Shown piece after piece: positions 1,336 to 64,000 of a DNA stretch of 64,000 nt. Both the position numbers and the translations under genes were made by a program. Every line of letters begins with the position of its first letter. Within the stretch, counting starts at the first letter, position 1. The notes beneath the pieces are model-generated. The model made no database searches, had not been told where the DNA came from, and saw only the letters and a list, made by a program, of their open reading frames with translations. Source of the DNA: Streptomyces sp. Je 1-369 (GTDB lineage: Bacteria > Actinomycetota > Actinomycetes > Streptomycetales > Streptomycetaceae); assembly GCF_026810505.1 (NCBI RefSeq), contig NZ_CP101750.1, positions 124,001 to 188,000 on the forward strand, given 5' to 3'.

Positions 1336-2109
1336 GGGTGGCTCCTTGTTCCTGTTCTGTACGGGGGTCCGGCCTCGGCGCAACTCCCGCGTACTGGGGG
1401 GGCTGGTTGCCGCCGGGGTGGAGGGTCGACGGGGCCCCGGGGGGGGCGGGCGTGACGGCCGGACGGCCGGTCGGACGGTCGTGACGGGTCGGGCGGCCGG
1501 TCGGACGGACGTGACGGGTCGGGCGGCCGGTCGGACGGTCGGTCGGTCGGACGGTCGGTCGGTCGGACGGGTCAGGCGGACGGCGGAGGCCGTGGCGGGC
1601 TCCCCCCGCCCGGCCTCGGGGCGGCTGCGCCCGCTTGCGGCTGGGCGGTTGCCGCCGAGTCGTGGCGCGGCAGGCGGACGGGCAGCGGACTCGCGCCACC
1701 CCAGGCCCGGACGGCACGGTCTCAGCTCGCCTCCTGCTCCGGGCGGCCGGCTGTCGCCCCACGGGGCAACGGGGGCAGGCGGACGGGCGGCGAACATGGT
1801 GGGCTCCCCCACCCGGCTCCGACTCAACGCCCCCCTGCGGTTGGGGCGTTGCCGCCGCGTCGGGGAGACGGCGCGGCAGGCGGGCGGGTGGACGACGCGC
1901 GCTGCTCCCTGTCCGGGCGGCCCCGGGTCCCGGTTCGGCTCCCGCCCCCGGCCGGTCGGCAGGCGAGGTGGCGGCAGGCGCGGGGCGTGGTGGCCCGGGC
2001 CAAGAGGGGGCCCCGGTCCGGGGCACCCTCTCCCCGGCGCGTGGCTGATGCCCGGGGGTGGGCGGGCATGGCAGGCCCGGCTCGAGGGCGAGCCCCGTAC
2101 CGGGAAAAC
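1336..2109. other. Long non-coding spacer with short direct repeats
   Basis: No convincing gene lies between the lyase start and the 98-bp array. Around 1450-1575 the sequence is a stutter of the octamer GGACGGTC and relatives (CGGTCGGA, GTGACGGGTCGGGCGGCC). Long open frames here result from extreme GC content and lack recognisable domains. Confidence 0.7.
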
Positions 2110-2640
2110 TTCCGCCCACCGACCCATGGTTGGCGCCGGGAGGGAGGCGGGTGCGGTGACGGGCAGGCAGGTAGTCCTGGTCCGGAGAGCCCCGGACCCA
2201 GGAGCAAACACCGCCCATCGAACCATGGTTGACGCCGAGAGGGTGCAGGCGCGGTGACGGGCAGGCAGGTAGTCCTGGACCGGTGAACCCCGGACCCAGG
2301 AGCAAACACCGCCCACCGACCCATGGTTGACGCCGAGAGGGTGCAGGCGCGGTGACAGGTGGGCAGGTGGGCCTGGACCGGTGAACCCCGGGCCCGGGAG
2401 CAAACACCGCCCACCGACCCACGGTTGACGCCGAGAGGGCGCGGGCGCGGTGACGGGCAGGCAGGTAGTCCTGGACCGGTGAGCCCTGGGCCCGGGAGCA
2501 AATACCGCCCACCGGCCCATGGTTGGCTCCGGCAGGGGGGGCGGGCGCGGTGACAGGTGGGCAGGTGGTCCTGGACCGGAGAGCCCCGGGCCCAGGAGCA
2601 AACCCCGACCACCGACCCATGGTTGACGCCGGGAGGGGGC
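2110..2640. repeat. Tandem array of about 98-bp repeats, 5.5 copies
   Basis: The marker CATGGTTG (once CACGGTTG) recurs at about 2125, 2224, 2322, 2420, 2518 and 2618, a period of 98-100 bp. Each unit also carries blocks similar to GGTGACGGGCAGGCAGG, CCTGGACCGG and GGAGCAAACACCGCCCACC. The array lies between two genes that should act together (CreE-like and CreD-like), so it either adds a long intercistronic spacer or hosts a separate promoter for the lyase. Confidence 0.9.
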
Positions 2641-2673
2641 GGGTGTGGCGGGCGGTGGGTGGCGTGGTGTGGG

Positions 2674-4743
2674 TCAGGTTTCTGCTCGGTCGGGCAGGGG
2701 CGTCCCGGGAGCGGGGTCGGTCGGGTACGGGGCCGGGGCCGGGTGGGGGGTCGGGGTGGTGGTGGGCCGGGAGGTGGCGGGGGTGGTGGTGGGCCGGAGT
2801 GTGGCGGGTGCGGGGGTGGGGTGGGGCGGGTGGTGCAGGGCCGCGCGGGCGATCGCGTCCGCGTCGGTGAGGGTCACCGAGTTGACGCCGGGGCGGATGC
2901 CCGCGGCCGTCACCCAGTGCACCGCTTCGGTGGGCACCCCGAAGGCGTAGCGGTGCGGGTGCGGGCGGCCCGCCGCGTCGATCAGGCGGAAGGGGCGCGG
3001 TGTGACGGCCAGCCCGTCGCTGTCGAAGGGCTGTACGCCGCGGGTGCGGATGCGGTGGGCGGTGCACTGGCCGGTGGCCAGCAGGTGGCGCAGCAGCCGG
3101 TCCTCGGTGCGGCGCAGCGTGATCGCGGGCAGCCGGGCCTCGACGACCGCGTCCACCTCCCGCGCCGAGTCGGGCACCAGCGGGGAGGCGGCGGTGCAGC
3201 GGCCGTGCTCCACCTGCACGCGCAGGCCGGGGCCGATCACGTCCAGCACCCCGGCCTCGATCAGCGCGGTCATCTCCTCCACCCGGCGGGCCGGCGGGCC
3301 GATCGACAGGTGCGCGTTGAGCGGCGTGTACCAGCCGTCCAGGTCGGTGCGGTGGGAGTCGCCGTCCAGGCCGCCGTGGTCGACGGCCAGGCGGATCTCG
3401 TTGCGCAGGTCCCGCAGTACGTCCAGGGCCGCCTTGAGGGGCCCGCTGACGTTGCCCGCCCGCGCCTCGGCCACGTCCTGGCGCAGCTGGTCCAGGAGCC
3501 AGCCGGTGAAGTCGTGCGGGCCGGTGAACTCCCGGTCGCGCCAGGGGCGGGCCAGCAGCTCCCAGTCCAGGCGGTCCTTCTCGCCGATGCCGTACTCCTC
3601 CAGCACCGCCCGCAGGTGCCGCTCCCCCGGCGGGGCGGCCAGGCAGGCGGCCTCCAGCTGCCGGGCCGGCAGCGCCTCGCCGCGCGAGCGCAGCAAGGTG
3701 GCGTAGTAGACGGCCTCCGCCTCCCGGGCGATCAGCGGCCACACATCGCGCCGGAAGTCCAGGCCGCCCACGGCGTGTTCGCGGCGCAGCACGGCGATGC
3801 GCCCGGCGGTGAGCAGGCGCGGCTCGTGGCGGCCGTGCGGGCCCTTCTCGTTCTCGCCGCGCGCCTGGTAGGGAACGCCGCGCCGCGATCCCGCGTACAG
3901 CTGCGGCTCGCGGCCCGAGGCCTGGTAGTACAGCCGGCCACCGCGGCGGGTGAAGGTGCCGCCGCGGCCGGCGGTGAGCCGGGCCAGGTAGTCGAAGAAG
4001 TTCAGGCCCAGGCCGCGCAGCAGCACCCGCATGCCCGGCGCCAGCGCGCGCAGGTCCACATCGGCGGGGTTGGCCGGCGCCAGGTGGGGCAGCCCCGCGG
4101 CGCGGGCGCGGCCGGCGAAGGCCCGCTCCCCCGCGTCCGCGCCGGCCGGCAGGTGGCCCTGGCACAGGATGACCGCGTCCAGTCCGCCGAGCACCGTGCC
4201 GTCCGCCAGCCGCACCCGCTGCCGCCCGCCACCGGACGGCCCCGTACCTGTGGGGGGTTCGTCGTCCAGCGCGACGGCCAGGCCGCGGTGGAAGGTGACA
4301 CGCACCCGGGCGGGCGCGCCGCGCACCACGCGCCGGCACACCCAGCGCAGGTAGTGGCCGTAAAAGGCGCGGGTGGGATACGTGTCGGGGCCCAGCGCGC
4401 GGGCCTGGGCCACCACCTCCTGCGGGTAGGCGTCGCCGAGCTGCCCGGCGGCCAGCGCGAGGGCCCACTCGTGCAGGCTGGGCCCCGGCTCCAGCGGCCC
4501 CGCAAGGTCGACGCTGGCATCGGTGAACACCGAGATCTGGCCGGCCACGGTGTTCATGAGCAGGTGCGGGGACTGGTCGGTGCGCCACACCCGGCCGGGG
4601 CCGGGCGGGCAGGGGTCGATCACATGGATGCGGAGGGGGCCGTCCTGCGGCCGCAGGCGGGCGTTGGCGCACAGGCGCTCGAGTACGGACAGGCCGCGCG
4701 GTCCGGCACCTACCACGCACACCGTGCGGGGGCTCGCTGTCAT
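2674..4743 (-). CDS. CreE-like FAD-dependent aspartate N-oxygenase (nitrosuccinate-forming)
   Basis: The 689-residue protein starts with a dinucleotide-binding motif, VCVVGAGPRGLSVLERL, and has the layout of the FAD/NAD(P)-binding family that includes CreE (cremeomycin) and FzmM (fosfazinomycin). Those enzymes oxidise the amino group of L-aspartate in steps to nitrosuccinate, from which the partner lyase releases nitrous acid. The lyase-type gene follows downstream on the same strand, which supports the pairing. The last 60 or so residues are a Thr/Pro-rich tail of low complexity that probably is not catalytic. The ATG at 4743 has only a weak ribosome binding site. An uncharacterised flavoprotein is the alternative. 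Confidence 0.78.
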   Translation of the reverse strand: MTASPRTVCVVGAGPRGLSVLERLCANARLRPQDGPLRIHVIDPCPPGPGRVWRTDQSPHLLMNTVAGQISVFTDASVDLAGPLEPGPSLHEWALALAAGQLGDAYPQEVVAQARALGPDTYPTRAFYGHYLRWVCRRVVRGAPARVRVTFHRGLAVALDDEPPTGTGPSGGGRQRVRLADGTVLGGLDAVILCQGHLPAGADAGERAFAGRARAAGLPHLAPANPADVDLRALAPGMRVLLRGLGLNFFDYLARLTAGRGGTFTRRGGRLYYQASGREPQLYAGSRRGVPYQARGENEKGPHGRHEPRLLTAGRIAVLRREHAVGGLDFRRDVWPLIAREAEAVYYATLLRSRGEALPARQLEAACLAAPPGERHLRAVLEEYGIGEKDRLDWELLARPWRDREFTGPHDFTGWLLDQLRQDVAEARAGNVSGPLKAALDVLRDLRNEIRLAVDHGGLDGDSHRTDLDGWYTPLNAHLSIGPPARRVEEMTALIEAGVLDVIGPGLRVQVEHGRCTAASPLVPDSAREVDAVVEARLPAITLRRTEDRLLRHLLATGQCTAHRIRTRGVQPFDSDGLAVTPRPFRLIDAAGRPHPHRYAFGVPTEAVHWVTAAGIRPGVNSVTLTDADAIARAALHHPPHPTPAPATLRPTTTPATSRPTTTPTPHPAPAPYPTDPAPGTPLPDRAET

Positions 4744-5098
4744 GTCTACCGTTTCTGCTGGTCACGCAACGGGGCGAGGACCACGGGACACCGCGCGGGC
4801 CGCCGCCCCTGAAGCGGGGTGGCAGGACTGCGGGGCCGGGTCCGGGCCTGGCGCCGAGCCGGGCTCGGCGGCAGGCGTGCGCACGCCCCGCCGGCCCGGG
4901 CAGACCTCACCCCTGGGCGGCGGACCACACCCGGCACGCCGGATGGGCGGCGGGAGGGTGTGGGCGTACGGCGGCGCGTGCGGGAGGGGAAGACGGGCGG
5001 CGGGGGCGGCGGCGGGCGGTGTGCCGCGCCGCGGGTGCTCCCCGCGCGTCCCTCCTGCGCCGGCCGTCAGCCGCTGTCGCGGGGCGGACGGTAGCCGT
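4744..5098. other. Spacer upstream of the CreE-like gene
   Basis: GC-rich non-coding sequence between the oxygenase start and a possible small ORF. It should contain the promoter of the CreE-like gene if the small ORF is not co-transcribed; no clear -10/-35 pair was seen. Confidence 0.5.
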
Positions 5099-5308
5099 TC
5101 ACCATGCGCGCCGGGTCGGCCCCGCGGCCGCACGGCCGCCTCCCCCGCGCGTCAGCAGAAACAGAACCGGATCATCGCCGAAGGGGCGGGGGCCGGTGCA
5201 AGGGCGGGCGGACACAGCGGAGCCGGGACCGGTGCCGGTCCCGGTGCCGGTCCCGGTGCCGGGGGCAGTGCCGGGGCCAAGGGCGTACACGGTGCTGGCG
5301 GTGTTCAT
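5099..5308 (-). CDS. Possible 69-residue small ORF with Gly-Thr repeat
   Basis: The ATG at 5308 is preceded at good spacing by GAGAGGAG, a strong Shine-Dalgarno match, which is why this short frame is listed. The product begins MNTASTVYALGPG, contains a Gly-Thr/Gly-Pro run encoded by repeats of GGTGCCGGTCCC, and ends in an Arg/Gly-rich stretch. It lies between mevalonate kinase and the CreE-like gene in the same orientation. No family was recognised, and it could be a chance frame. Confidence 0.3.
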   Translation of the reverse strand: MNTASTVYALGPGTAPGTGTGTGTGTGPGSAVSARPCTGPRPFGDDPVLFLLTRGGGGRAAAGPTRRAW

Positions 5309-5335
5309 GTGCCTGCTCCTCTCGCCTGTCCGTAC

Positions 5336-5404
5336 ACGGATACGTGGATGGTGCCGGGATACGTGGATGGTGCGGGGATGGTGCCGGGATACGTGGATGG
5401 TGCC
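5336..5404. repeat. Short tandem repeat, GGATACGTGGATGGTGC units
   Basis: Three full copies and one partial copy of a roughly 17-19 bp unit (GGATACGTGGATGGTGC) stand between mevalonate kinase and the small ORF. No function is evident. Confidence 0.8.
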
Positions 5405-5465
5405 GCCGGGTACCGCCGGGTGACGCCGGGGGTGGATGCCGGGGGTCAGGAAGCGGTGCGGGGGG

Positions 5466-6518
5466 TCAGGAGGTGGCGCGGGGGCCGCCGGTGCGGCGGG
5501 CCGTCAGCGGCAGGACCCAGGTCTGCTGCGCGCCGGCCGCGTGGAGGCGGCGGGTGACGGCGCCGGCCTGGTCGCAGGGGACCAGCGCGATCATGCAGCC
5601 GCCGAGCCCGCCCCCGGTGATCTTGGCGCCGAGGCTGCCCGCGGCCAGCGCCGCCTCGACCAGCGCGTCGATGCGCTCGGTGCTCAGCCGGGCCTCGCGC
5701 AGCAGGTGGTGATAGGCCGTCAGGTAGGGGCCGAGGTCGTCGGGGGTGTCCTGGGCCAGGGCGTGGCGGGCCCGGTCGGTCAGCAGGGCGGCGCGGCGCA
5801 GGAAGTGGTGCCGGCTGCCGGGGTGGCGGGTGAAGCCGTCACGCAGCCGGGTCACCGCGTCCTTGGTACGGCCCACCTCGCCGCTGTCGGCCACGATGAA
5901 CAGCCCTTCGCAGCCCACCTCCAGGTCCTGGGCGGCTCCCTGCTGGAACAGCAGCGGGCCGGGCGCGCCCACGGCGGTGGCATCGACGCCGCTGGCCCGG
6001 CCGTGGGCCACGTTCTCGGCGCTCTGCACCAGGTCGAAGACCGTGCGCGCATCGACCTCGCGGCCAAAGAGGTCGGCCAGGGCCAGGACCACGGCGCGGG
6101 CGCACGCGGCGCTGGAGCCCAGGCCGCGGCCGGGCGGGATCGCGCAGTCCAGGATCACCTCCAGGTGCACGTCCGCGGCCACGTCCATGGCGGTACGGAA
6201 CTCCGCGGCCAGCTGCCGCAGCCCGTCGGAGGCCTCGGTGGCCACCGGCCGGGAGGGGGAGCCGGTCATCGTCAGGGACACCCCGCCGGCGGCGGCGGGG
6301 CCCGGCGCGGACCAGCCGGCGCTGGCCGTGACCGCCAGCTGCGGCACCGGCAGTGCCAGGGCGGGCGCCCCGTACACCACGGCGTGCTCGCCCAGCAGGA
6401 TCGTCTTGGCGTGGGCGCGGCCGACCCCGACCGTGCGGGCCCGGCGGGCGGCGGGGGCGGCGTCCGGGGCCGGGGCCGGTGGTGTCAACGCGCTCAGCTC
6501 CCCTGGTGTTTTCCGCAT
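5466..6518 (-). CDS. mvk: Mevalonate kinase
   Basis: GHMP-kinase fold of 350 residues that phosphorylates (R)-mevalonate with ATP. All three GHMP motifs are visible: KTILLGEHAVVYG near residues 38-50, PPGRGLGSSAA in the ATP-binding loop, and KITGGGLGGCM near the C-terminus. The frame stays open upstream of the chosen ATG (6518), but the extension does not resemble the family. Streptomyces normally makes isoprenoids by the MEP route; a mevalonate pathway gene usually marks a terpenoid or meroterpenoid cluster. The other mevalonate genes are not in the window and may lie left of it. Confidence 0.93.
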   Translation of the reverse strand: MRKTPGELSALTPPAPAPDAAPAARRARTVGVGRAHAKTILLGEHAVVYGAPALALPVPQLAVTASAGWSAPGPAAAGGVSLTMTGSPSRPVATEASDGLRQLAAEFRTAMDVAADVHLEVILDCAIPPGRGLGSSAACARAVVLALADLFGREVDARTVFDLVQSAENVAHGRASGVDATAVGAPGPLLFQQGAAQDLEVGCEGLFIVADSGEVGRTKDAVTRLRDGFTRHPGSRHHFLRRAALLTDRARHALAQDTPDDLGPYLTAYHHLLREARLSTERIDALVEAALAAGSLGAKITGGGLGGCMIALVPCDQAGAVTRRLHAAGAQQTWVLPLTARRTGGPRATS

Positions 6519-6724
6519 GGAGATCGCATCGTCCAGACTTCTCGGAAGGAATGAGGAAACGCAGACGTACGACGGGTACGTAAAAGGCGTAGCAGGGCGC
6601 AGCGGTAAGGCCCGTCCGGTGCTGCGCCGTGCCGATCCGGCTGCCGGTCCGGTCCGGGGGCGTATTCGCCTCACCGGTTGCGGATACGGGGCGCCCCGGC
6701 CCAATCCCCCGCCGCGGCAGGGTA

Positions 6725-6810
6725 TTTGGGCAGGGTGGATGCACCGGAATAGTGACACGCGGGATGAGGCTGCGCCTAGGGCGCGTGGGGGTGGTGTGGG
6801 TCACGTGAGG
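6725..6810. promoter_or_regulatory. Conserved upstream element shared with the THN synthase side
   Basis: TTTGGGCAGGG (6725-6735) and GGAATAGTGACACG (6746-6759) recur with the same 23-bp offset at 27864-27900. A TCACGTGA palindrome follows at about 6801, and the second locus has AGTGAC-N4-GTCACT in the equivalent place. On the minus strand the element lies about 230 bp upstream of mevalonate kinase. It is a candidate promoter or operator for a pathway regulator such as a SARP; which factor binds is not visible. Confidence 0.55.
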
Positions 6811-6811
6811 C

Positions 6812-6859
6812 TGAAAAGCCCGTACCGCCCCCGGGGCAGGACCCGGGGGCGGTACGGGC
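6812..6859 (-). terminator. Rho-independent terminator of the MFS-side transcript
   Basis: A perfect 18-bp inverted repeat (6818-6835 with 6842-6859, loop of 6 nt) is followed on the minus strand by TTTTCAG. It lies about 100 bp past the MFS stop codon, so it should end the long right-hand minus-strand transcript before mevalonate kinase. Confidence 0.88.
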
Positions 6860-6906
6860 AGAACAAACCGTCGGCCATCGGCCGCCGAAAGGCGTTATGG
6901 CAGCAC

Positions 6907-11948: not shown

Positions 11949-14900
11949 GGCCGGCCTCCGGCGTTGAAGTAGCTGGCCTGGGGGTGATGCAGGACGATGG
12001 CGTCGGTGGACTGCTCGGGGTGGAGCTGGAATTCCTCGGAGAGCTGTACGCCGATCCGCTCGGGCCGCAGCAGGGCGGCGATCTTGGCGCGGTCGGCGAG
12101 GTCGGGGCAGGCCGGGTAGCCCAGGGAGTAGCGGCAGCCCTGGTACTGGGTGCGGAACATGCCCTCGACGCTGTCCGGGTCGCTGCCGGCGATGCCGAGT
12201 TCGGCGCGTACCCGGGCGTGCCAGTACTCGGCGAGGGCCTCGGCGAGCTGGACGGACAGGCCGTGCAGTTCGAGGTAGTCGCGGTAGGAGTCGGCGGCGA
12301 ACAGTTCCGCGGTGGCCTCGCCGATCTTCGAGCCGACGGTGACGACCTGCAGCCCCACGACATCGGTCTCGCCGGATTCCTCGGGGCGGAAGAAGTCGGC
12401 CAGGCACAGGCGTCGCCCGCGCGGCTGGCGGGGGAAGGTGAAGCGGGTGTGCTCGGCGCCGGCCTCGTCCAGCAGGATCAGGTCGTCGCCCTTGGCAACG
12501 CAGCGGAAGTAGCCGTGGACGACGGCGGCTTCGAGCAGGCCCTCGGTCTGTACCCGCTCCAGCCAGCCGCGCAGCCGGGGCCGTCCCTCGCTCTCGACGA
12601 GCTCCTCGTAGGAGGGCCCCTGGCCGGTGCGGTCTTGTTTGAGCCCCCACTGGCCCTTGAACAGGGCGCCCTCATCGAGCCAGGAGGCGTACTCCTTGAG
12701 CTGGATGCCCTTGATGACGCGGGTGCCCCAGAACGGGGGCGTGGGCAGCGGGTTGTCGACGGCCACATCCGAGCGGGAGGGACCCTCGGCCTCCTCGACG
12801 GCCACCGGCGCCTCGCGCTTGGGCACACGGCGCTGCTTGAGCTCGGGCAGGCTCGCCCCGGGCACACCCCGCTTCACCGCGATCAACGCGTCCATCAGAC
12901 GCAGGCCCTCGAACGCGTCGCGGGCGTAGCGCACTTCGCCTTCGTAGATCTCGTGCAGGTCCTGCTCGACGTAGGCGCGGGTCAGCGCCGCCCCGCCCAG
13001 GATGACCGGGTAGTCCGCGGCCATCCGGCGCTGGTTGAGCTCCTGAAGGTTCTCCTTCATGATCACCGTGGACTTGACCAGCAGCCCCGACATGCCGATC
13101 ACATCGGCCCTGTGCTCCGCCGCGGCATCCAGGATCGCCGCGACCGGCTGCTTGATCCCCAGATTGACCACGTTGTAGCCGTTGTTGGACAAAATGATGT
13201 CCACCAGGTTCTTGCCGATGTCATGGACGTCACCACGGACGGTGGCCAGCACGATGGTGCCCTTGCCCTCGTCGTCCGTCTTCTCCATGTGCGGCTCCAG
13301 ATGCGCCACCGCCGTCTTCATCACCTCGGCGGACTGCAGCACGAAGGGCAGCTGCATCTGCCCGGACCCGAACAGCTCACCGACGACCTTCATGCCCTCC
13401 AGCAGGATGTTGTTGACGATGTCCAGCGCCGGAGTGTCCTGGAGCGCCTCGTCGAGGTCGGCCTCCAGACCGTTCTTCTCCCCGTCGATGATGCGCCGCT
13501 GCAGACGCTCCTCCAGCGGCAGCGCGAGGAGCTCCTCGGCCTTGCCCGCCCTCATCGACTTCGTGGAGACCCCCTCGAAGAGCTCCATGAGCCTCTGCAG
13601 CGGGTCGTAGCCCTCCGCACGCCGGTCGTAGATCAGGTCGAGTGCGACCGTGACCTGCTCCTCCTCCAGACGCGCGATCGGCAGGATCTTCGAGGCGTGC
13701 ACGATCGCCGAATCCAGGCCCGCCTTGACACACTCGTGAAGGAAGACGGAGTTGAGCACGACCCGCGCGGCCGGGTTCAGACCGAAGGAGATGTTGGACA
13801 GCCCCAGCGTGGTCTGCACCTGCGGGTGACGCTTCTTCAGCTCCCGGATCGCCTCGATGGTGGCGATGCCGTCCCCCCGGGACTCCTCCTGGCCGGTGCA
13901 GATGGTGAAGGTCAGGGTGTCGATGAGGATGTCCGACTCCTGGATGCCCCAGGTGCCGGTCAGGTCCTCGATCAGCCGCTCGGCGATGGCGACCTTGTGC
14001 TCGGGAGTACGCGCCTGGCCCTCCTCATCGATGGTCAGCGCGATCAGCGCCGCACCGTGCTCCCGGGCCAGCGCGGTGACCTTCGCGAAGCGGGACTCGG
14101 GCCCGTCCCCGTCCTCGTAGTTCACCGAGTTGATGACCGCCCGGCCGCCCAGCTTCTCCAGACCCGCCCGGATGACGGGGAGCTCGGTGGAGTCCAGGAC
14201 GATGGGCAGGGTGGAGGCGGTGGCGAAGCGGCCCGCGAGTTCCGCCATGTCCGCCACACCGTCACGGCCCACGTAGTCCACACACAGATCCAGCATGTGC
14301 GCGCCCTCACGGATCTGCTCCCGCGCCATCTCCACACAGTCGTCCCAGCGGGCCTCAAGCATCGCCTCACGGAACTTCCTCGAACCGTTGGCGTTGGTCC
14401 GCTCCCCGATCGCCATGTACGCGGTGTCCTGACGGAAGGCAACCGTCTGGTACAGCGAGGCGGCGCCCGGCTCGGGGCGCGGGGTGCGGGCGGGCGGGGT
14501 CAGGCCCCGGACCCGCTCCACGACCTGGCGCAGGTGCTCCGGAGTCGTCCCGCAGCAGCCGCCGACCAGCGAGAGACCGTAGTCGCGCACGAAGTTCTCC
14601 TGCGCGTCGGCCAGTCCGTCGGGATCCAGCGGGAAGTGCGCGCCGCCCTTGGTCAGGACGGGCAGCCCGGCGTTGGGCATGCACAGCAGCGGGATGCGGG
14701 AGTGGCGGGCCAGGTAGCGCAGGTGTTCGCTCATCTCGGCGGGGCCGGTGGAGCAGTTCAGGCCGATCATGTCGATGCCGAGGGGTTCGAGCACGGTCAG
14801 CGCGGCGCCGATCTCGGAGCCCAGGAGCATGGTGCCGGTGGTCTCGAAGGCCAGGGAGCACACCAGCGGCAGGTCGAGGCCGGCCCGGTCCAGGGCGCGG

Positions 14901-54021: not shown

Positions 54022-56196
54022 TCACTCGGGGATCAGGTCGCGCAGATTTTCCGGAGTGAAGATCCGCGACTCGGGGTGCAGCCCTTCGGGGCGCTGCATG
54101 CCCAGGTAGGTGACCGGCCCTCCCGGGGTGCTCTTGCCGTCCCACAAGGTCACTTCCGTATCGCCCATCAGGCCGATCAGCCAGCGCACCGTCAACTGTT
54201 CCCGCTCGACGATGCCGCGCGCCAGTTCCTCCACCGTCGCACGGGTCTCCTCGACGCGGTTGGCGGCCGGCATGCCCTTGAGATACAAGTGCAGCCAGTG
54301 CGCACGCCACCGGCCGTTGTCGCCGCGCTGGAACACCAGCGGCAGCGCCACCCGGCCGGGGCCCCGCAGATCCGACTTCATCCGCACGGTCCGCGGTTCG
54401 AACGGCCGACCCTTCTGCTCGCCTTCTCGCAGCATGAACCCGAAGAACGACTCCTCGGTGTCCAGGAAGCTCTCCCCGGAGTACAGCAGGACCTGCGGGA
54501 CGACGAAGCTGCCGCGTACCGCTCCCAGCCGCAGCTCGATGAACTCCGAGGCACCCTCGGGTGCTTCGGTGATGTCTCCGGAATGCCGGCCCTCCACGTC
54601 CGTCAGCTGGGTGTACGAGAGCCAGGTGACCTGCTCGTAGTTCTCGTCCAGGACTACCGCGGACAAGTCGTAGTCGGTGGTCTGGCTCTTCTGCTTCCAG
54701 TACACGAAGAACCGCAGCAGCTCGCCCTCGACAGGCGACACCGAGCCGCGCGGCAGCACCCCGAGCCCGGAGGCGACCGCCTTGCCGCTGAGCGGCAGCG
54801 CCACATCGAGGAAGTCCGGGTCAATGAGCACCGACCCGGCATCCGGCAGTCGGCTCGCGATCTCCGTGTCGAGCAGCTCGATCAGTCGCTCCCTGGCAGA
54901 GCCGGGCAGTGCGGGGCGGGTGTCCTCGGTGACCCAGGCACGCCCGAGCCGGTTGATGAACACCCTGCGTGCGCCGCCCTGTTCGAGCTGGTCTCCCCGG
55001 TTCAGCAGGTGCTGGCGCACCGACAGCAGTACCCGCCCGGCAGCCTGCCGGGCCGCCTTTTCGGCCCCGGCGAGCACAGCCGCGTACTCCTCGTCCGTAC
55101 GGGCCAAGCGCACCAGCCGGTCAAGGGCCCGCAGCAGCACACCCGGTGCGGACTCCAGCAGGTTCACGGCACCGGCCAGGTCGCCCTGGCCCAGCAGCTC
55201 CTCGACCCGGCTCGCGAACGATCGCACCCGCTGCTCACCGCGCGCCACCGCGAACACCCGGGCGGCGTAGGGCCACTGGGGGAACTCGTGCGGGTGCAGC
55301 CGCTCACCGAGCCGCTTCCATACTTCCCGGCGCGCGCTCACATCGGCCAGCTTCGCGGGCGCCGCGGCGACCACCGCGTCAAGGCCCGCGAGCAGCGCCC
55401 GGCGCGCGGGCCTCGACAGCTTCACGAACTTGGTGGGCCCAAGCAGGGACACGTCGCCGTCCGCCAGCGCGCAGGCAAGTCGCAGCACATCGGTCACGGT
55501 GTCGAGGAGCAGCCCCGTACCGGCCCGCAGACGTGCCTTGTTGATCACGGCGCGGTTCTCTCGCACGGGGATCTCTTCGGGCTGCGGGCCGTCCGCGCAG
55601 TGCGTCGCCAGCGCATCGAGGTCACGGAGGTGTTCCTCACTCAGCGGTGTGCGGCTGCCTGCGAGCTTGCGGTACAGCTCGCCGACCTCGTCCGGTGCGT
55701 CCTGGCCGAGGTGCAGCACCGTCACCCGGTCACCGGCCGCCGCGAGCAACTCGTCGTGGTGGTTGAGCATTTGGGTGTACGTGTGCTGGTAGCGGCCGTA
55801 GGAAGGCAGCGTCAGCAGATTCACCACGCCAGTGCTGAGCTGCTCGAGGGTGCCTTCGCGGGTTTCGTCGTCGGCGAGCGCCTCGCGGATGCACTGCATC
55901 CAGAAGTCCAGGGTGTCCGGCACATTGGCCGGGAAGCCGATGAAGTACGTGTTGTGCCGCACGTGGTCACCCACCAGCTCACGCACGCCGGTCAGCGTCC
56001 GCACGGCGATATCGACCACCGCGTCCTGGGACAGCCCGGCCAGTCGCTCGAGGAGGGGACCGGACAACTTGAACCCCACGGACATCAAGGCTGAGTCGAA
56101 CTGCCGCGCAGCGGCGGCACCGTCACCGATTGGCCCCTCGGGGGCAGGGAGACGGTGGGTGTGTCGGACGACCAGATGTTCGAGAGGGTGGGCCAT
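54022..56196 (-). CDS. MXAN_6230/SCO0988-family protein with C-terminal TerD-like domain
   Basis: The 724-residue protein has a long helical N-terminal part and a TerD-like C-terminal domain (YDLSAVVLDENYEQVTWLSYTQ, HSGDITEAPEGASEFIEL, FFGFMLREGEQKGRPFEP). TerD domains bind calcium and occur in stress and conflict systems. The family name is from memory. ATG 56196 gives MAHPLEHLVVRHTHRLPAPEG; the frame extends to 56388, but that part is Arg/Ser-rich and unlikely. Two structured RNA-like elements lie 20 bp past its stop codon, which could be its 3' UTR or a partner RNA. Confidence 0.85.
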   Translation of the reverse strand: MAHPLEHLVVRHTHRLPAPEGPIGDGAAAARQFDSALMSVGFKLSGPLLERLAGLSQDAVVDIAVRTLTGVRELVGDHVRHNTYFIGFPANVPDTLDFWMQCIREALADDETREGTLEQLSTGVVNLLTLPSYGRYQHTYTQMLNHHDELLAAAGDRVTVLHLGQDAPDEVGELYRKLAGSRTPLSEEHLRDLDALATHCADGPQPEEIPVRENRAVINKARLRAGTGLLLDTVTDVLRLACALADGDVSLLGPTKFVKLSRPARRALLAGLDAVVAAAPAKLADVSARREVWKRLGERLHPHEFPQWPYAARVFAVARGEQRVRSFASRVEELLGQGDLAGAVNLLESAPGVLLRALDRLVRLARTDEEYAAVLAGAEKAARQAAGRVLLSVRQHLLNRGDQLEQGGARRVFINRLGRAWVTEDTRPALPGSARERLIELLDTEIASRLPDAGSVLIDPDFLDVALPLSGKAVASGLGVLPRGSVSPVEGELLRFFVYWKQKSQTTDYDLSAVVLDENYEQVTWLSYTQLTDVEGRHSGDITEAPEGASEFIELRLGAVRGSFVVPQVLLYSGESFLDTEESFFGFMLREGEQKGRPFEPRTVRMKSDLRGPGRVALPLVFQRGDNGRWRAHWLHLYLKGMPAANRVEETRATVEELARGIVEREQLTVRWLIGLMGDTEVTLWDGKSTPGGPVTYLGMQRPEGLHPESRIFTPENLRDLIPE

Positions 56197-56446
56197 GCGG
56201 GAATGGTGGCAGAGCGATATCGCCGTGCGCACCTGGGTTTCCGGTACGAGCAAGCGGACACGAAGCCGAGGCTTCGCGCTGCTCCCGCGGGATATACAGG
56301 CCCCCGGGCTCGTGGTCGCGAAGGCTGTGCGGCAAGGGCGAGAGTTGCGGGTCAATGCGCTTCTTTTCGTGTGCGTGCCCTCGGCCATGTCATCTCATGT
56401 CATCTACCACAGGCTCCTCGCTGTAAGGGTCGCGTGAGTGTGGTGC
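56197..56446. other. Upstream region of the SCO0988-like gene
   Basis: No gene was recognised. It should hold the promoter of the leftward gene. Together with the next remnant it makes a stretch of about 700 bp without an intact gene. Confidence 0.45.
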
Positions 56447-59363: not shown

Positions 59364-60113
59364 GTGGGCACCATCCGTGTGGGAGTGATCGGTGCGGCCG
59401 GGCGTATGGGTCGTGAAGTGGTCGCGGCCGTCGAGTCGGCTGACGATCTGGAACTGGTGGCGGCGCTGGGGCGCGCCGACCCCCTGCACGACCTCACCCG
59501 CGCCCGTGTCCAGGTCGCCGTGGAGCTGACCCATCCCGACGCGGCCATGGACCATGTGGAGTTCTGCGTGCGTGCGGGCATCCACGGGGTGGTCGGCACC
59601 ACGGGCTGGAGCGACGAGCGGCTGGAGACACTGCGAGGTTGGTTGGCCGGCTCTCCGACGACGGGCGTGCTCATCGGACCGCTCTCCGTCGGCGCGATGC
59701 TGACCATGCGGCTCGCGCAGTACGCGGCGCGCTGGTTCGAGTCCGTCGAGGTCGTCGAGAGGCATCATCCCGACAAGGTCGACGCCCCGAGCGGGGCGGC
59801 CGTGCGCACGGCCCGGCTCATCGCCGACGCCCGCCGTAAGGCCGGCAGGGTTGCGCAAGCGGATGCGACCACCACCGCGCTGCGGGGCGCCCGCGGCGCG
59901 GACGTCGAAGGCGTACCGGTGCACGCCGTGCGGGCACGCGGGCTCGTGGCCCACCAGGAAGTCATCTTCGGCGGAACGGGAGAAACGCTGACGATCCGGC
60001 ATGACTCCATGGACCGTGCCTGCTTCACGCCCGGCTTCCTGCTCGCGGTGCGCCGGGTGGGGGCGGTCCCGGGGCTGACCGTGGGGCTTGAGCCCTTCAT
60101 GGACTGGGAGTGA
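59364..60113 (+). CDS. 4-hydroxy-tetrahydrodipicolinate reductase (DapB)-like enzyme
   Basis: The 249-residue protein has the NAD(P) motif VGVIGAAGRMGREV, the GTTGW loop and the full catalytic motif ERHHPDKVDAPSGAA with the His pair and Lys of DapB. In lysine synthesis it reduces dihydrodipicolinate; here it heads a LysW-type operon, so it more likely reduces a related cyclic imine made by the pathway. The GTG start at 59364 has GGGAGG upstream. A duplicated housekeeping dapB is the alternative. Confidence 0.88.
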   Translation: MGTIRVGVIGAAGRMGREVVAAVESADDLELVAALGRADPLHDLTRARVQVAVELTHPDAAMDHVEFCVRAGIHGVVGTTGWSDERLETLRGWLAGSPTTGVLIGPLSVGAMLTMRLAQYAARWFESVEVVERHHPDKVDAPSGAAVRTARLIADARRKAGRVAQADATTTALRGARGADVEGVPVHAVRARGLVAHQEVIFGGTGETLTIRHDSMDRACFTPGFLLAVRRVGAVPGLTVGLEPFMDWE

Positions 60114-60144
60114 GGTCGGACGGCCTGCTCGTGGAGCCGTCCGG

Positions 60145-60299
60145 CACATACGCGTACACCGCAAGGTGTGTCCGGCGTATACACGTACAACGCAAGGCGC
60201 GTCCGACGCATACACGAACAACGCAAGGCGCGTCCGACGCATACACGAACAACGCAAGGCGCGTCCGGCGCACACACGTCCGCGACAAGGAGTGCGGGA
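60145..60299. repeat. Five tandem 31-bp repeats ending in the next gene's ribosome binding site
   Basis: Units start at 60145, 60176, 60207, 60238 and 60269, each with (C)GCATACACG, then AACAACGCAAGG, then CGCGTCCG. Copies 3 and 4 differ by a single base. In the last copy GCAAGGCGCG has become ACAAGGAGTG, which is the Shine-Dalgarno site for ATG 60301. The repeats may be duplications of an ancestral leader. Confidence 0.92.
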
Positions 60300-60300
60300 C

Positions 60301-61449
60301 ATGGCAGCAGAGAGCCCGGCCGGCGCGGTGCGCCCGCCGCTCGTATCGGATGCCACCCTGCGGGACTCCGCCCACATGGCGGGAGTCGAATTCCGTCCGA
60401 AGGACGCCGCCGCACTCGCGGGCCTGCTGGTCAGGACCGGCGTGGCGCTGGTCGAAGTGGGGATGGTGTCGGGCCCGGGCAGCAGGGACGCCGACCTCGT
60501 CCTCGCCGCTCATGAGGCCGTCGGTCCCGAGCGCTGTATGACACTGCTCGTCGTACGCGACCGTCGGCAGGTCGCCGCGGCCCTCGAGGAGGCCGGGCGG
60601 CTGGGGGTGCGGCACCTCATGTGCTCCATCCCCACCTCCGAGCGGCACGCCGCACTGAAGCTCGGCTCGTCCAGCCTCAAGTTTTTGCAGGTGCTGGCCC
60701 GTTCGGCCATTGAGCAGGCCAAGGAGCGCGGATTCCATGTCACCTTCAGCGGCGAGGACGGCGCCCGGACTCCCGTCGAACGGCTTCTGCCCTATGTGAC
60801 GACGGGGTTTCGGGCGGGAGCCGACCGCTTCCGGCTGGCGGAGACCGTCGCCTGTCTCGCTCCGTGGCAGATGGCGGAGTTGATTGGACACCTGGTGACA
60901 ATCGACCGCTCTGAGATCGAAGTGCACTCGCACAACATGCTGGGCATGGCCGTCGCCAACTCGCTGGCCGCGGCGCAAGCGGGCGCCCGGTGGATCTCCG
61001 CCACCGTGGGTGGCATCGGAGAGCGCGGGGGCAACACGCCGCTGGCCGAGCTGCTCATGGCCCTGCGCGTCCTGCACGCGGACACCCGTTTCGACCTCAC
61101 GCACCTCACCGAACTCTCCCGCCTCGCGCTGCGCGGTTCCGGACTCGGGGACGCCTTCCAACCCGGTCCGGCCACCCCACACGCATTCGCCTACGAGCTG
61201 GTCGGCCAGCTCAGCCACCCCGACGCGTACGAGACGCTGCCCGCCGAACTCCTCGGCAACGAACGGCGGTTACGTGTGCGCAGTCGTCTCACGCCCGCCC
61301 TGGTCCGCTGGGCGCTGGCCGGATCGGGCCTTCAGGTGGACGTCGACGTCCTCACCGCCTGGCTCGTCGAACGGCAGGAGCGGGACGGCGGCCCGCTGCT
61401 CGACCGGGACGCGATCCGTAGGGCTGCCGCGGCTTTCGCGTCCGCCTGA
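60301..61449 (+). CDS. Homocitrate-synthase/isopropylmalate-synthase-like DRE-TIM enzyme
   Basis: The 382-residue protein has the metal and active-site motif SDATLRDSAHMAGVEF, the metal His pair in EVHSHNMLGMAVANS and GIGERGGNTPL. These are the landmarks of enzymes that condense acetyl-CoA with a 2-keto acid. In the HxHN(D)xG motif the usual Asp is Met, a notable difference. There is no LeuA-type regulatory domain. As the second gene of a LysW-type operon it resembles the homocitrate synthase step of aminoadipate-lysine synthesis, but the acceptor acid is unknown. Confidence 0.85.
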   Translation: MAAESPAGAVRPPLVSDATLRDSAHMAGVEFRPKDAAALAGLLVRTGVALVEVGMVSGPGSRDADLVLAAHEAVGPERCMTLLVVRDRRQVAAALEEAGRLGVRHLMCSIPTSERHAALKLGSSSLKFLQVLARSAIEQAKERGFHVTFSGEDGARTPVERLLPYVTTGFRAGADRFRLAETVACLAPWQMAELIGHLVTIDRSEIEVHSHNMLGMAVANSLAAAQAGARWISATVGGIGERGGNTPLAELLMALRVLHADTRFDLTHLTELSRLALRGSGLGDAFQPGPATPHAFAYELVGQLSHPDAYETLPAELLGNERRLRVRSRLTPALVRWALAGSGLQVDVDVLTAWLVERQERDGGPLLDRDAIRRAAAAFASA

Positions 61450-61477: not shown

Positions 61478-61663
61478 ATGACGAGAGACACGCTCGCCGG
61501 TACCTGCCCCGAGTGCGAGACGGACCTGACCGTACCGGCGTTGGTCGAGGGCGAGACGCTCGCCTGCCCCGAGTGCATGCTCACCCTGCGCGTCGAGGGG
61601 ATCTCGGAGGGCCGGATGATCCTGCACATGGTCGAGACCCGGCTTCGCGACTGGGGTCAGTGA
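61478..61663 (+). CDS. LysW-like amino-group carrier protein with C-terminal Gln
   Basis: The 61-residue protein has the zinc ribbon of LysW (CPEC at 10-13 and CPEC at 30-33) and a C-terminus RDWGQ. In LysW and known carrier homologues the end reads EDWGE, and the side-chain carboxyl of the last Glu is joined to the amino group of the substrate. Here the last codon is CAG (Gln) before TGA, so that carboxyl is absent. GGGAG precedes ATG 61478. The ligase gene follows after one base, so the pair should still work together. Confidence 0.88.
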   Translation: MTRDTLAGTCPECETDLTVPALVEGETLACPECMLTLRVEGISEGRMILHMVETRLRDWGQ

Positions 61664-61664
61664 C

Positions 61665-62531
61665 GTGCCGCGGACGGTCGCCGTCGCCGCGGACCGGGTC
61701 GGCTGGGAAGAACGCCGAGTGATGGACGCCGGCCCGGCCTTCGGCCTGCGCCTGGAGTGGGTCAACGACGAGTCGCTGTGCCTGGGGCACCCGGACGCGC
61801 CCTCGCTCGCCGGCTACGACGCGCTGTGGGTGCGCAGCCGGAGCTACACCCGCGGCGGTCTCCTCGCCTCGCTCGCCGAGTCCGCCGCGCTCCGCACGCT
61901 GAACACGGCCCGTGCGATCGGGCTGTGCCAGAACAAGGCAGCCCTGCGTGCCGTGCTGCGCACCGCGGGCATCGCCGTCCCCGACTTCCGTCTCGTCCTG
62001 TCCCGTGGGGATTTCGATCGCTGCTTGCAAGAGCTGCCGCTGCCCCTCGTTCTCAAACCCGTCTTCGGCGGTATGGGCAAGCGCGTCACCCTGCTCCGGC
62101 ACGCCGACACCGCCGCGTCGATCTACGACTACGTCGAGGACCTCGGGCATGGCTTCGAACAGGCATGCCTGATGGAGCCGTACCTGGGCGACACCTCGGT
62201 GCGCTGCATGGTGGTGGGCAGCGAGCTGCTCGGTACGGTCGAGTGCACCGGCGGCACCGGCGACACCGGCGACAACGTCGACTGGCGCTCCAACGCGGCC
62301 CTCGGGCATCGGGCCCGCGCCGTGCCGAGCGACCCGGAGCTGCGCAAGGTGCTCGACGACGTGGTGGGCGAACTCGGCCCGGGCATTTACGGGGTCGACC
62401 TCTTCCGGGGCCCGGAACGCTACGTGGTCAACGAGGTCAATCACGCGCCGGGCTTCCGGTCGCTGGACGCGGTCACCGGCGCGGACACCCCCTCTGCCAT
62501 CGCCCGTCATCTCCGGGAGGTCCCCGCATGA
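61665..62531 (+). CDS. LysX-like ATP-grasp ligase (carrier-protein loading)
   Basis: The 288-residue protein is an ATP-grasp enzyme of the LysX/RimK group, with LPLVLKPVFGGMGKRV as the ATP-binding Lys region, CLMEPYLGDTSVRCMVVG, and VVNEVNHAPGFRSLDAVTG carrying the metal-binding Glu and Asn. LysX joins the amino group of its amino acid to the last Glu of LysW. It starts with GTG one base after the carrier stop and overlaps the next gene by four bases. It probably matches the unusual Gln-ended carrier. Confidence 0.88.
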   Translation: MPRTVAVAADRVGWEERRVMDAGPAFGLRLEWVNDESLCLGHPDAPSLAGYDALWVRSRSYTRGGLLASLAESAALRTLNTARAIGLCQNKAALRAVLRTAGIAVPDFRLVLSRGDFDRCLQELPLPLVLKPVFGGMGKRVTLLRHADTAASIYDYVEDLGHGFEQACLMEPYLGDTSVRCMVVGSELLGTVECTGGTGDTGDNVDWRSNAALGHRARAVPSDPELRKVLDDVVGELGPGIYGVDLFRGPERYVVNEVNHAPGFRSLDAVTGADTPSAIARHLREVPA

Positions 62532-63583
62532 TCCGTGCGGGCGTCATCGGCGCCTCCGGGCTCACCGGCGGTGAACTCATCAGACTCCTCACGCTGCACC
62601 CCCACCTCGAACTCACCTTCCTCGGGGGAGCCTCCAGCGTCGGCATGCGCCCCGGCGAGCTCCATCCCGGCCTGCGCATCGACCCGGCCCTGACGGTGCG
62701 GCGCGTCACCGCGGACATCGCCGATCAGCTCGATGTGGCCTTCCTGGCCACCCCCGCTCCGGTGTCGGCGGAACTCGCCGCACTGCTCGCGGACCGCGTA
62801 CCCGTCGTGATCGACCTCAGCGGCGCCTTCCGGATCCGTACCCGACAGCTCCACGACCGCTGGTACCCCGAAGTGGACCGCCGCGCCGACCTGGTGGACC
62901 GCTTCGTGTACGGCGTACCCGAGTTGACCGGCGAGCAACTGGACACCGCCGCGCTGATCTCGCTTCCCGGCTGCTACGCCACCGCGGTCACCCTGGGCCT
63001 GGCGCCTCTGGTCCTCGGCCTGGGTCTGCGCGTGGACCGGGTGCTCGTGGACGCCAAGGGCGGATCCAGCGGCAGCGGTCTGCGCCTGCGCACTGCCGGC
63101 CTGCATCCCCTGCGCAGCGGCGCCATCACCCCGTACGCCCCGACCGGCCACCGGCACGCCGCGGAGGTCACCGACTTTCTGCAGCGGACCCGATCCGGCT
63201 CCGTCGGCTCCCTGACCATGTCCGCGTACGGCGTCCCCACCGTGCGGGGCCTGCTGGCCAGCCTCTATGTGCTGAGCGACCGGACCATCACCCCACGGGA
63301 CCTCGAGCGGGCCTACCTCCGCTTCTACAAGGGGCATCCCTTCGTGCGCGTACGACGGCACACCGAGACTCGCATCCCCATGCCCGACCCGCAGGCGGTG
63401 CTGGGATCCAACTTCTGTGATGTGACCGCCCTCGTCGACGAGGACGGCGGCCACATCGTCGTCCTCGCCGCCCTCGACAACCTCGTCAAGGGCGCCGCGG
63501 GCCAAGCCGTGCAGGCAGCCAACCGGCGCTTCGGCCTCGCCGAGGAGACGGGGCTGACGATGCAGCCGGTGATGCCCGCATGA
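62528..63583 (+). CDS. ArgC/LysY-like N-acyl-gamma-glutamyl (or carrier-bound) phosphate reductase
   Basis: The 351-residue protein has the NADP motif VIGASGLTGGELIRLL and the catalytic Cys in SLPGCYATAVTLGL, as in ArgC and LysY. It would reduce a carrier-bound acyl phosphate to the semialdehyde. It overlaps the ligase stop and the kinase start by four bases each (ATGA), so the operon is translationally coupled. Its location in a LysW-type operon favours the LysY-like role over arginine synthesis. Confidence 0.92.
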   Translation: MIRAGVIGASGLTGGELIRLLTLHPHLELTFLGGASSVGMRPGELHPGLRIDPALTVRRVTADIADQLDVAFLATPAPVSAELAALLADRVPVVIDLSGAFRIRTRQLHDRWYPEVDRRADLVDRFVYGVPELTGEQLDTAALISLPGCYATAVTLGLAPLVLGLGLRVDRVLVDAKGGSSGSGLRLRTAGLHPLRSGAITPYAPTGHRHAAEVTDFLQRTRSGSVGSLTMSAYGVPTVRGLLASLYVLSDRTITPRDLERAYLRFYKGHPFVRVRRHTETRIPMPDPQAVLGSNFCDVTALVDEDGGHIVVLAALDNLVKGAAGQAVQAANRRFGLAEETGLTMQPVMPA

Positions 63584-64000
63584 GCACGATGCCGCAGACG
63601 CCGCACGGGTCGCACAGGCCGCCCGCGACCACGACCGTGGTCAAGCTCGGCGGGAGCTGCCTGGACACCCTCGACGACCCCTGGTGGGACGACCTGGCCC
63701 GCCTGGCACGGGAACGCCCGCTCATCCTCGTCCACGGCTGGTCACGCCCGCTGCAGCAGCTCGACCCGCGCCATCGCCCGCCATCGGCGATGCTGCGCGA
63801 CCGCTACGGCAACCAGAGCCGCTGGACCACGCCACAGGTCCTCGACGACATCAAGACCGTCAGCGCGGCACTGAGCGAAGAAATCCGGCACAAGCTGCGC
63901 ACGCGCGCCGTCACCACCCGACGGCTGCTCGGCAGCGACGGAATGATCAGCGCGGGCCCGGCCGAGCGCCTGTGGTGGCGGGACAGGGAGCTCGTCGAAC
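63580..64000 (+). CDS. LysZ/ArgB-like amino acid kinase, cut by window edge
   Basis: The visible 140 residues show the N-terminal TTTVVKLGGSCLDTL of the amino acid kinase family and LILVHGWSRPLQQLD, where family members usually have HGGG or HGGS. It should phosphorylate the carboxyl of the carrier-bound amino acid for the reductase. The C-terminal half lies past the right edge. Its neighbours make a LysZ-like role more likely than ArgB. Confidence 0.85.
   Translation, partial: MSTMPQTPHGSHRPPATTTVVKLGGSCLDTLDDPWWDDLARLARERPLILVHGWSRPLQQLDPRHRPPSAMLRDRYGNQSRWTTPQVLDDIKTVSAALSEEIRHKLRTRAVTTRRLLGSDGMISAGPAERLWWRDRELVE

What the first reader, a model, noticed from the sequence alone, without database searches (positions are those of the whole stretch)
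61478..61663. Amino-group carrier protein ends in Gln instead of the Glu that is loaded
The LysW-like protein ends RDWGQ. Known carriers end EDWGE, and the side-chain carboxyl of that Glu holds the substrate. Gln cannot form the same isopeptide bond by the usual route. Either loading occurs on the free C-terminal carboxyl, or Gln is first deamidated, or the carrier works by another chemistry. The rest of the loading set (ligase, kinase, reductase) is intact and coupled to it, so the gene is unlikely to be dead.
Basis: partly seen in the sequence, partly recalled or inferred. Interest (0 to 1): 0.85.

Follow-up and report, generated by a model that had tools for sequence, protein, structure and literature searches.

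The report
Gln-tipped amino-group carrier with linked amidase
A small carrier protein that should end in glutamate ends in glutamine in a broad family of soil bacteria, regularly beside a predicted amide-cutting enzyme, which suggests that the tip is unmasked by the same enzyme that later frees the product.

Summary
The 61-residue LysW-like carrier at 61478-61663 ends LRDWGQ (CAG). I read 118 carrier ORFs of this operon family (89 distinct DNAs): 86 end in CAG (Gln) and 3, all Rhodococcus, in GAG (Glu). Canonical carriers of other clusters end in Glu in 18 of 18.

Three things change with the Gln. The ligase loop reported to read the EDWGE tail, GSWGR, is GGMG[KR] in 100 of 100 partner ligases (GGLGR in one outlier). 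No LysK-like release peptidase was found in 105 of 105 family stretches. A class-I glutamine-amidotransferase-like hydrolase follows LysZ in 109 of 110 stretches; here it lies at 64437-65000, just past the window edge.

Best reading: Gln is a masked Glu. The operon's amidase removes the NH2, the ligase loads the freed gamma-carboxyl, and the same amidase later releases the product, as Dop does for Pup. This is inferred; no chemistry was tested. Against it, Gln is far more conserved here than in Pup. Relatives belong to species named in print as carrying clusters like the iso-maleimycin cluster, whose lysW/rimK pair is required. I found no account of the Gln tip in the held library.

The parts
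61478..61663 (+). Gln-ended LysW-like amino-group carrier protein, 61 aa, tail LRDWGQ
   Evidence: ending conserved
61658..61660 (+). C-terminal Gln codon CAG
   Evidence: CAG in 86 of 89 distinct carrier DNAs
61665..62531 (+). LysX/ArgX-type ATP-grasp ligase with KPVFGGMGKR loop instead of GSWGR
62528..63583 (+). LysY/ArgC-type acyl-phosphate reductase
   Evidence: Pfam; TIGR01850 318.8 bits against a cut-off of 233.6
63580..64000 (+). LysZ/ArgB-type amino-acid kinase; runs out of the window and ends at 64425 in window numbering. It is followed outside the window by the class-I GATase-like amidohydrolase at 64437-65000
60301..61449 (+). HMGL/isopropylmalate-synthase-like condensing enzyme, next to the carrier in this family
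   Evidence: Pfam PF00682; NCBIfam nearest homocitrate/isopropylmalate synthases, below cut-off; synteny
59364..60113 (+). DapB-type reductase upstream of the operon; among the loci compared found also in S. aurantiacus JA 4570 only
   Evidence: TIGR00036 192.4 bits against a cut-off of 122

Best explanation
The operon encodes a variant amino-group-carrier system. The carrier is made with its loading residue masked as Gln. The class-I GATase-like hydrolase coded after LysZ removes the side-chain NH2, so that the tip becomes Glu. LysX then joins the amino group of a substrate (probably an acidic amino acid such as glutamate) to the gamma-carboxyl, as in lysine and arginine biosynthesis. LysZ and LysY turn the substrate's side-chain carboxyl into an aldehyde, and the HMGL-like enzyme extends it by a carbon-carbon bond. 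The same hydrolase, in place of the missing LysK, cuts the gamma-amide to free the product and leaves a Glu tip that can be reloaded. Shown here: Gln conservation, gene partnership, no LysK found, loop change in the ligase, and a Glu-ended lineage that keeps the whole operon. Inferred: every catalytic step, the substrate, and that one enzyme both deamidates and releases.
Against: No chemistry was tested. If Gln were only a masked Glu, Glu should appear about as often as in Pup. It does not: 1 Glu among 85 distinct carrier proteins against 12 of 30 Pups (Fisher p 1.5e-7; within the window's genus 0 of 21 genomes against 4 of 9, p 0.005; sequences are related, so the p values are optimistic). 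Something selects for Gln in most lineages, and this model does not say what. The nearest solved relatives of the GATase are GMP-synthase glutaminase subunits; gamma-glutamyl peptidases are weaker matches; NCBIfam places the two relatives tested below every cut-off. The Glu-ended evidence comes from one lineage (three near-identical sources). Nothing here shows that the tail fits the GATase site.
Confidence: 0.5

Rival explanations
1. The ligase loads the cargo on the free alpha-carboxyl of the terminal Gln by an ordinary peptide bond, and the Gln side chain is a recognition mark read by the altered GGMG loop.
Against: Release would then need an alpha-peptidase; no M20/LysK match was found in 105 of 105 stretches, and a GATase-type enzyme is not expected to cut an alpha bond. 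The GATase next to it stays unexplained.
Confidence: 0.17
2. The Gln amide nitrogen itself takes part: an acyl group is joined to it, processed, and the GATase cuts the gamma-glutamyl side to release a primary amide. The carrier donates the nitrogen that ends in the imide of iso-maleimycin-type products.
For: Near-absolute Gln conservation. A GATase-like hydrolase, named by RefSeq a gamma-glutamyl-GABA hydrolase family protein in the four records looked at, lies beside it. The named product is a maleimide (PMC12022981; structure recalled). Precedent for use of glutamine as phosphorylated donor: the Campylobacter glutamine kinase (PMC9561416 passages); that the amide nitrogen is used there, and the hydrolase step, are recalled. 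The gamma-glutamyl-CDP-amidate hydrolase model gives weak hits here, 28.6 and 25.1 bits against a cut-off of 250.
Against: Rhodococcus has the full operon with Glu. The carrier would be consumed once per product. I know of no ATP-grasp enzyme that acylates an amide nitrogen.
Confidence: 0.12
3. The GATase only makes ammonia from free glutamine for another step, and the Gln tip is handled by an unlinked deamidase or is not deamidated at all.
Against: Among the six conserved genes none is recognised as ammonia-using, and no LysK was found, so release is unexplained.
Confidence: 0.15

Closest known systems
LysW/ArgW amino-group carrier systems of lysine and arginine biosynthesis (Thermus, Sulfolobus, Thermococcus, haloarchaea)
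   Same: Zinc-ribbon carrier of about 60 residues with a DWG tail; LysX-type ligase, LysY/ArgC and LysZ/ArgB encoded with it.
   Different: Tail LRDWGQ, not EDWGE; ligase loop GGMG[KR], not GSWGR; a GATase where LysK would be expected; a condensing enzyme is added. LysJ was not searched for.
Secondary-metabolite AmCPs of Streptomyces (vazabitide A and azinomycin type, DADH)
   Same: An AmCP used outside primary metabolism.
   Different: The carriers of other clusters seen here (18) end in Glu, with [GS]SWGR ligases (16 of 16) and an M20/LysK match in 16 of 19 stretches. Whether any of them is a DADH cluster was not tested. Hasebe 2016 itself was not read.
iso-Maleimycin cluster BGC23a of Streptomyces sp. 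QL37
   Same: A 2-isopropylmalate-synthase gene, lysW and rimK together; deletion of lysW and rimK abolishes iso-maleimycin. The paper names Streptomyces sp. SM11, S. filamentosus and S. shenzhenensis among strains with similar clusters (PMC12022981, sections 5 and 8 and passages). L129, L135 and L119 are family loci from genomes of those names, all Gln-ended and with the full gene set; that they are the clusters meant is inferred.
   Different: The QL37 carrier itself was not read. The window operon lacks the dehydrogenase, AMP ligase, aminotransferase and FAH-like genes.
Pup/Dop/PafA pupylation
   Same: A small protein loaded through its terminal residue, encoded as Gln or Glu; one amidase both deamidates and releases (PMC8223512 passages).
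   Different: Unrelated proteins and chemistry: here ATP-grasp and class-I GATase folds.

Membership tests
LysW/AmCP carrier | Zinc-ribbon with two CxxC pairs | tested here: met
   C10, C13, C30, C33 invariant in 19 aligned carriers; LysW profile NF041070 E 7e-10 but below its cut-off; Pfam PF21344 26.9 bits against 27
LysW/AmCP carrier | C-terminal Glu (EDWGE) that carries the cargo | tested here: not met
   Ends RDWGQ, CAG
LysW/AmCP carrier | Isopeptide loading through the gamma-carboxyl | not testable with these tools
   Needs mass spectrometry
LysX/ArgX ligase | ATP-grasp fold and sequence of LysX/ArgX | tested here: met
LysX/ArgX ligase | GSWGR loop that reads EDWGE | tested here: not met
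   KPVFGGMGKR; 100 of 100 family ligases have GGMG[KR], 16 of 16 canonical have [GS]SWGR; the outlier L227 has GGLGR
AmCP pathway | LysK-type release peptidase in the cluster | tested here: not met
   One LysK query: 0 of 105 family stretches, 16 of 19 canonical stretches
Class-I GATase / C26 hydrolase | Cys-His-Glu triad in a GATase fold | tested here: met
Gamma-glutamyl hydrolase (PuuD-like) | Hydrolysis of a gamma-glutamyl amide | not testable with these tools
   RefSeq names four relatives so; activity untested
iso-Maleimycin cluster | HMGL, LysW, RimK and AMP ligase together | tested here: inconclusive
   Present in L119, L129 and L135, from genomes bearing names given in the paper; the window genome has no close AMP ligase (best 35% identity)

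The most novel reading that the evidence does not exclude
The carrier's terminal Gln is a chemical participant: its side-chain amide nitrogen accepts the acyl group and ends up, after cleavage by the linked gamma-glutamyl hydrolase, as the nitrogen of the product. It would be a genetically encoded, protein-borne nitrogen donor for amides or imides.
Probability: 0.12. Interest if true: 0.92.

Novelty: new variant of a known kind. Interest (0 to 1): 0.62.

Why it matters
Amino-group carriers are understood through one loading residue, a C-terminal Glu. A broad actinobacterial branch with Gln, a linked amidase-like gene and a rewritten ligase loop gives a clean natural experiment on how the tail is read, activated and released. 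It proposes a function for a conserved, uncharacterised GATase-like gene in clusters that resemble the iso-maleimycin cluster, and makes a Pup/Dop-like masking logic in small-molecule biosynthesis directly testable with three purified proteins.

Tried and rejected
Sequencing error or pseudogene: rejected, because the ending is the same in 86 of 89 distinct DNAs. Glu-ended sisters within the window's genus: none among 21 genomes with the family carrier, own included. Amide strictly required: weakened by Rhodococcus. Rest of the pathway elsewhere in the genome: no FAH-like gene and no close AMP ligase. The empty own-genome searches have no positive control in the same genome; dehydrogenase and aminotransferase were sought only in the 30 kb around the operon.

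Ancestry: on a 47-row ligase tree the canonical ligases form one side of a starred branch. Rhodococcus lies inside the family, between a divergent Gln row (L227, long branch) and the rest. If that place of L227 is right the tip residue changed at least twice; if not, one change would do.

Leads that went nowhere: family searches of two other groups gave 0 of 35 and 0 of 22. Nine Acidobacteria/Terriglobia loci (L143-L151) matched only part of the cysteine region and were dropped. L168/L186 is a false hit (another zinc ribbon), kept in the 19 canonical stretches but not in the 18 carriers. Of 9 plasmid records I read 4 carriers. One of the ten frames given to (L044) was an arbitrary stretch and is not used. 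Papers: Hasebe 2016 and Matsuda 2017 were not looked up and not read; PMC4281745 is not held. No account of Gln-ended carriers turned up in searches; this covers the held library only. Product chemistry (C5 glutamate plus a C2 unit, then cyclisation to a cyclopentene dicarboxylate) was considered but left out of the claims. A GATase without any match among other folds is not claimed; fold lists were cut at 50 rows.

Full report
WHAT IS THERE. Window 61478-61663 (+) encodes a 61-residue LysW-like zinc-ribbon protein ending LRDWGQ, last codon CAG, stop TGA. It lies in a tight operon: DapB-type reductase 59364-60113, HMGL/isopropylmalate-synthase-like enzyme 60301-61449, the carrier, a LysX/ArgX-type ligase 61665-62531, a LysY/ArgC reductase 62528-63583 and a LysZ/ArgB kinase from 63580. 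The window is base 124001-188000 of an 8.82 Mb single-contig genome, whose nearest named relatives by ligase are Streptomyces. Reading past the edge, the kinase ends at 64425 in window numbering and is followed at 64437-65000 by a 187-residue class-I glutamine-amidotransferase-like protein. The next long frame, from 65216 on the other strand, looks like HtpG (recognised by eye). One LysW-like gene was found in the genome, by sequence and by alignment.

THE GLN IS A FAMILY TRAIT. A search of 394 genomes of the same family gave matches in 36. In 36 fetched stretches from the other genomes, 39 carrier ORFs were read: 37 end LRDWGQ and 2 end EDWGE. The latter are 38-39% identical to the query and lie in other clusters. 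A scan of named genomes kept the best 80 of 84 relatives; 70 loci are in Streptomyces, Kitasatospora, Streptacidiphilus, Actinacidiphila, Lentzea, Kribbella, Kutzneria, Glycomyces, Nocardia, Nocardiopsis, Streptomonospora, Sphaerisporangium, Actinoplanes, Saccharothrix and an Amycolatopsis MAG, and 70 of 70 end LRDWGQ. One of the two search patterns included the Gln, so the scan alone leans towards Gln; the other pattern lies at the first cysteines. Nine further loci of that scan, outside Actinobacteria, matched only part of the cysteine region and were dropped. Many unnamed and named loci are the same genomes. After pooling, 118 carrier ORFs in 115 stretches are 89 distinct DNAs: 86 end in CAG and 3 in GAG. 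Carriers of other clusters, found in 394 genomes of the class with an alignment that includes both types, end in Glu in 16 of 17 hits outside the family (14 EDWGE, 2 EDFGE); the seventeenth is another zinc ribbon.

A GLU-ENDED LINEAGE WITH THE SAME OPERON. Rhodococcus plasmids (R. fascians A21d2, R. erythropolis) carry HMGL, carrier, RimK-type ligase, ArgC, kinase, GATase, AMP ligase, aminotransferase, FAH-like gene and dehydrogenase. Their carrier ends LRDWGE, the ligase loop is GGMGR and the GATase triad is intact. A third source (G854, one of 2 matches among 351 genomes of its family; the other, G883, ends in Gln) has the same protein. On a ligase tree the canonical ligases separate on a starred branch and Rhodococcus falls inside the family. 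A long-branched Gln row (G1185, tail LPDWGQ) sits outside it. If that placement holds, the tip residue changed at least twice; if it does not, a single change would do. The lineage shows that the amide is not needed in every member and that the GATase is kept when there is no Gln to deamidate.

HOW IT MOST LIKELY WORKS. The known cycle needs loading, activation, reduction, a change on the aldehyde, and release. The minimal operon of this window supplies LysX, LysZ, LysY, an HMGL-like condensing enzyme and the GATase. The simplest assignment gives release to the GATase, which would hydrolyse the gamma-amide between carrier and product. Removing NH2 from a terminal Gln is the same reaction with ammonia as leaving group, so the same enzyme could unmask the tip. 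Actinobacterial Pup is a parallel of logic: in a number of species encoded with Gln, deamidated before ligation, with Dop doing both deamidation and depupylation (PMC8223512, passages). In 30 Pup genes read here, the best-scoring of 162 genomes with Pup, 18 end in Gln and 12 in Glu. I put this model at 0.5.

WHAT DOES NOT FIT. Pup toggles between Gln and Glu, 5 to 4 within the window's genus, whereas the carrier does so in one lineage only (84 Gln, 1 Glu among distinct proteins; Fisher p 1.5e-7 class-wide, 0.005 within the genus, both optimistic because sequences are related). So Gln seems to be selected in most lineages. It may insulate this system from canonical ones (G188 holds both kinds), it may be read by the new ligase loop with loading on the alpha-carboxyl, or its nitrogen may be used. 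The last is the boldest reading. Clusters that resemble this one are tied to a maleimide, and a class-I GATase-like hydrolase that frees an amidate from a gamma-glutamyl group has a recalled precedent in Campylobacter phosphoramidate synthesis (glutamine kinase: PMC9561416 passages). Rhodococcus argues against it.

LINK TO A PRODUCT. In Streptomyces sp. QL37 deletion of lysW and rimK in BGC23a abolishes iso-maleimycin and lugdunomycin; the cluster also has a 2-isopropylmalate-synthase gene. The authors name S. sp. SM11, S. filamentosus and S. shenzhenensis among strains with similar clusters (PMC12022981, abstract, outline, sections 5 and 8, and passages). Family loci from genomes of those names are L129, L135 and L119, all Gln-ended and all with the full set; that they are the clusters meant is inferred. 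The parts of the paper that I saw do not mention the tip residue or a carrier mechanism, and neither 'glutamine' nor 'glutamine amidotransferase' occurs in its text. The window strain lacks, beside its operon, the dehydrogenase, AMP ligase, aminotransferase and FAH-like genes of those clusters, and its genome has no close AMP ligase and no FAH-like match. It shares the minimal form, with DapB, with S. aurantiacus JA 4570; its product is probably different.

NOVELTY. Searches of the held library gave no account of Gln-ended carriers. The founding papers on Streptomyces AmCPs were not read, so priority is not established. I rate it a new variant of a known kind: it works like an amino-group carrier system, but the defining Glu tip, the GSWGR loop and LysK were tested and not met.

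Noticed in passing
L049, L051, L061; also L080 with L098 and L075 with L109: Five Streptomyces clusters hold two Gln-ended carriers about 10-11 kb apart in opposite orientation. In the second-carrier views L092, L098, L105, L109 and L111 the second copy lies beside the aminotransferase and AMDase-like genes, away from the ligase.
   Followed up: partly
L227 (G1185) 3-6883: A divergent family operon has a diaminopimelate-decarboxylase-like gene (recognised by eye) between carrier and ligase, and its carrier ends LPDWGQ. This hints at a diamino-diacid intermediate.
   Followed up: partly
L228 (G883) 12020-13479: A minimal operon with a RidA-like reading frame (recognised by eye) between LysZ and the GATase.
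   Followed up: no
window 59364-60113: DapB-type reductase (TIGR00036, above cut-off) next to the carrier operon, shared with S. aurantiacus JA 4570 at 85-86% identity.
   Followed up: partly
window 60110-60290: Short near-repeats (acgcaaggcgcgtccgacgcatacac) fill the gap between the DapB-type gene and the HMGL-like gene (seen by eye).
   Followed up: no
window 54025-56388, - strand: 788-residue reading frame without any Pfam match at E 0.001.
   Followed up: no
Pup genes, L191-L220: Within the window's own genus the Pup C-terminus alternates between Gln (5) and Glu (4) among 9 genomes read.
   Followed up: yes
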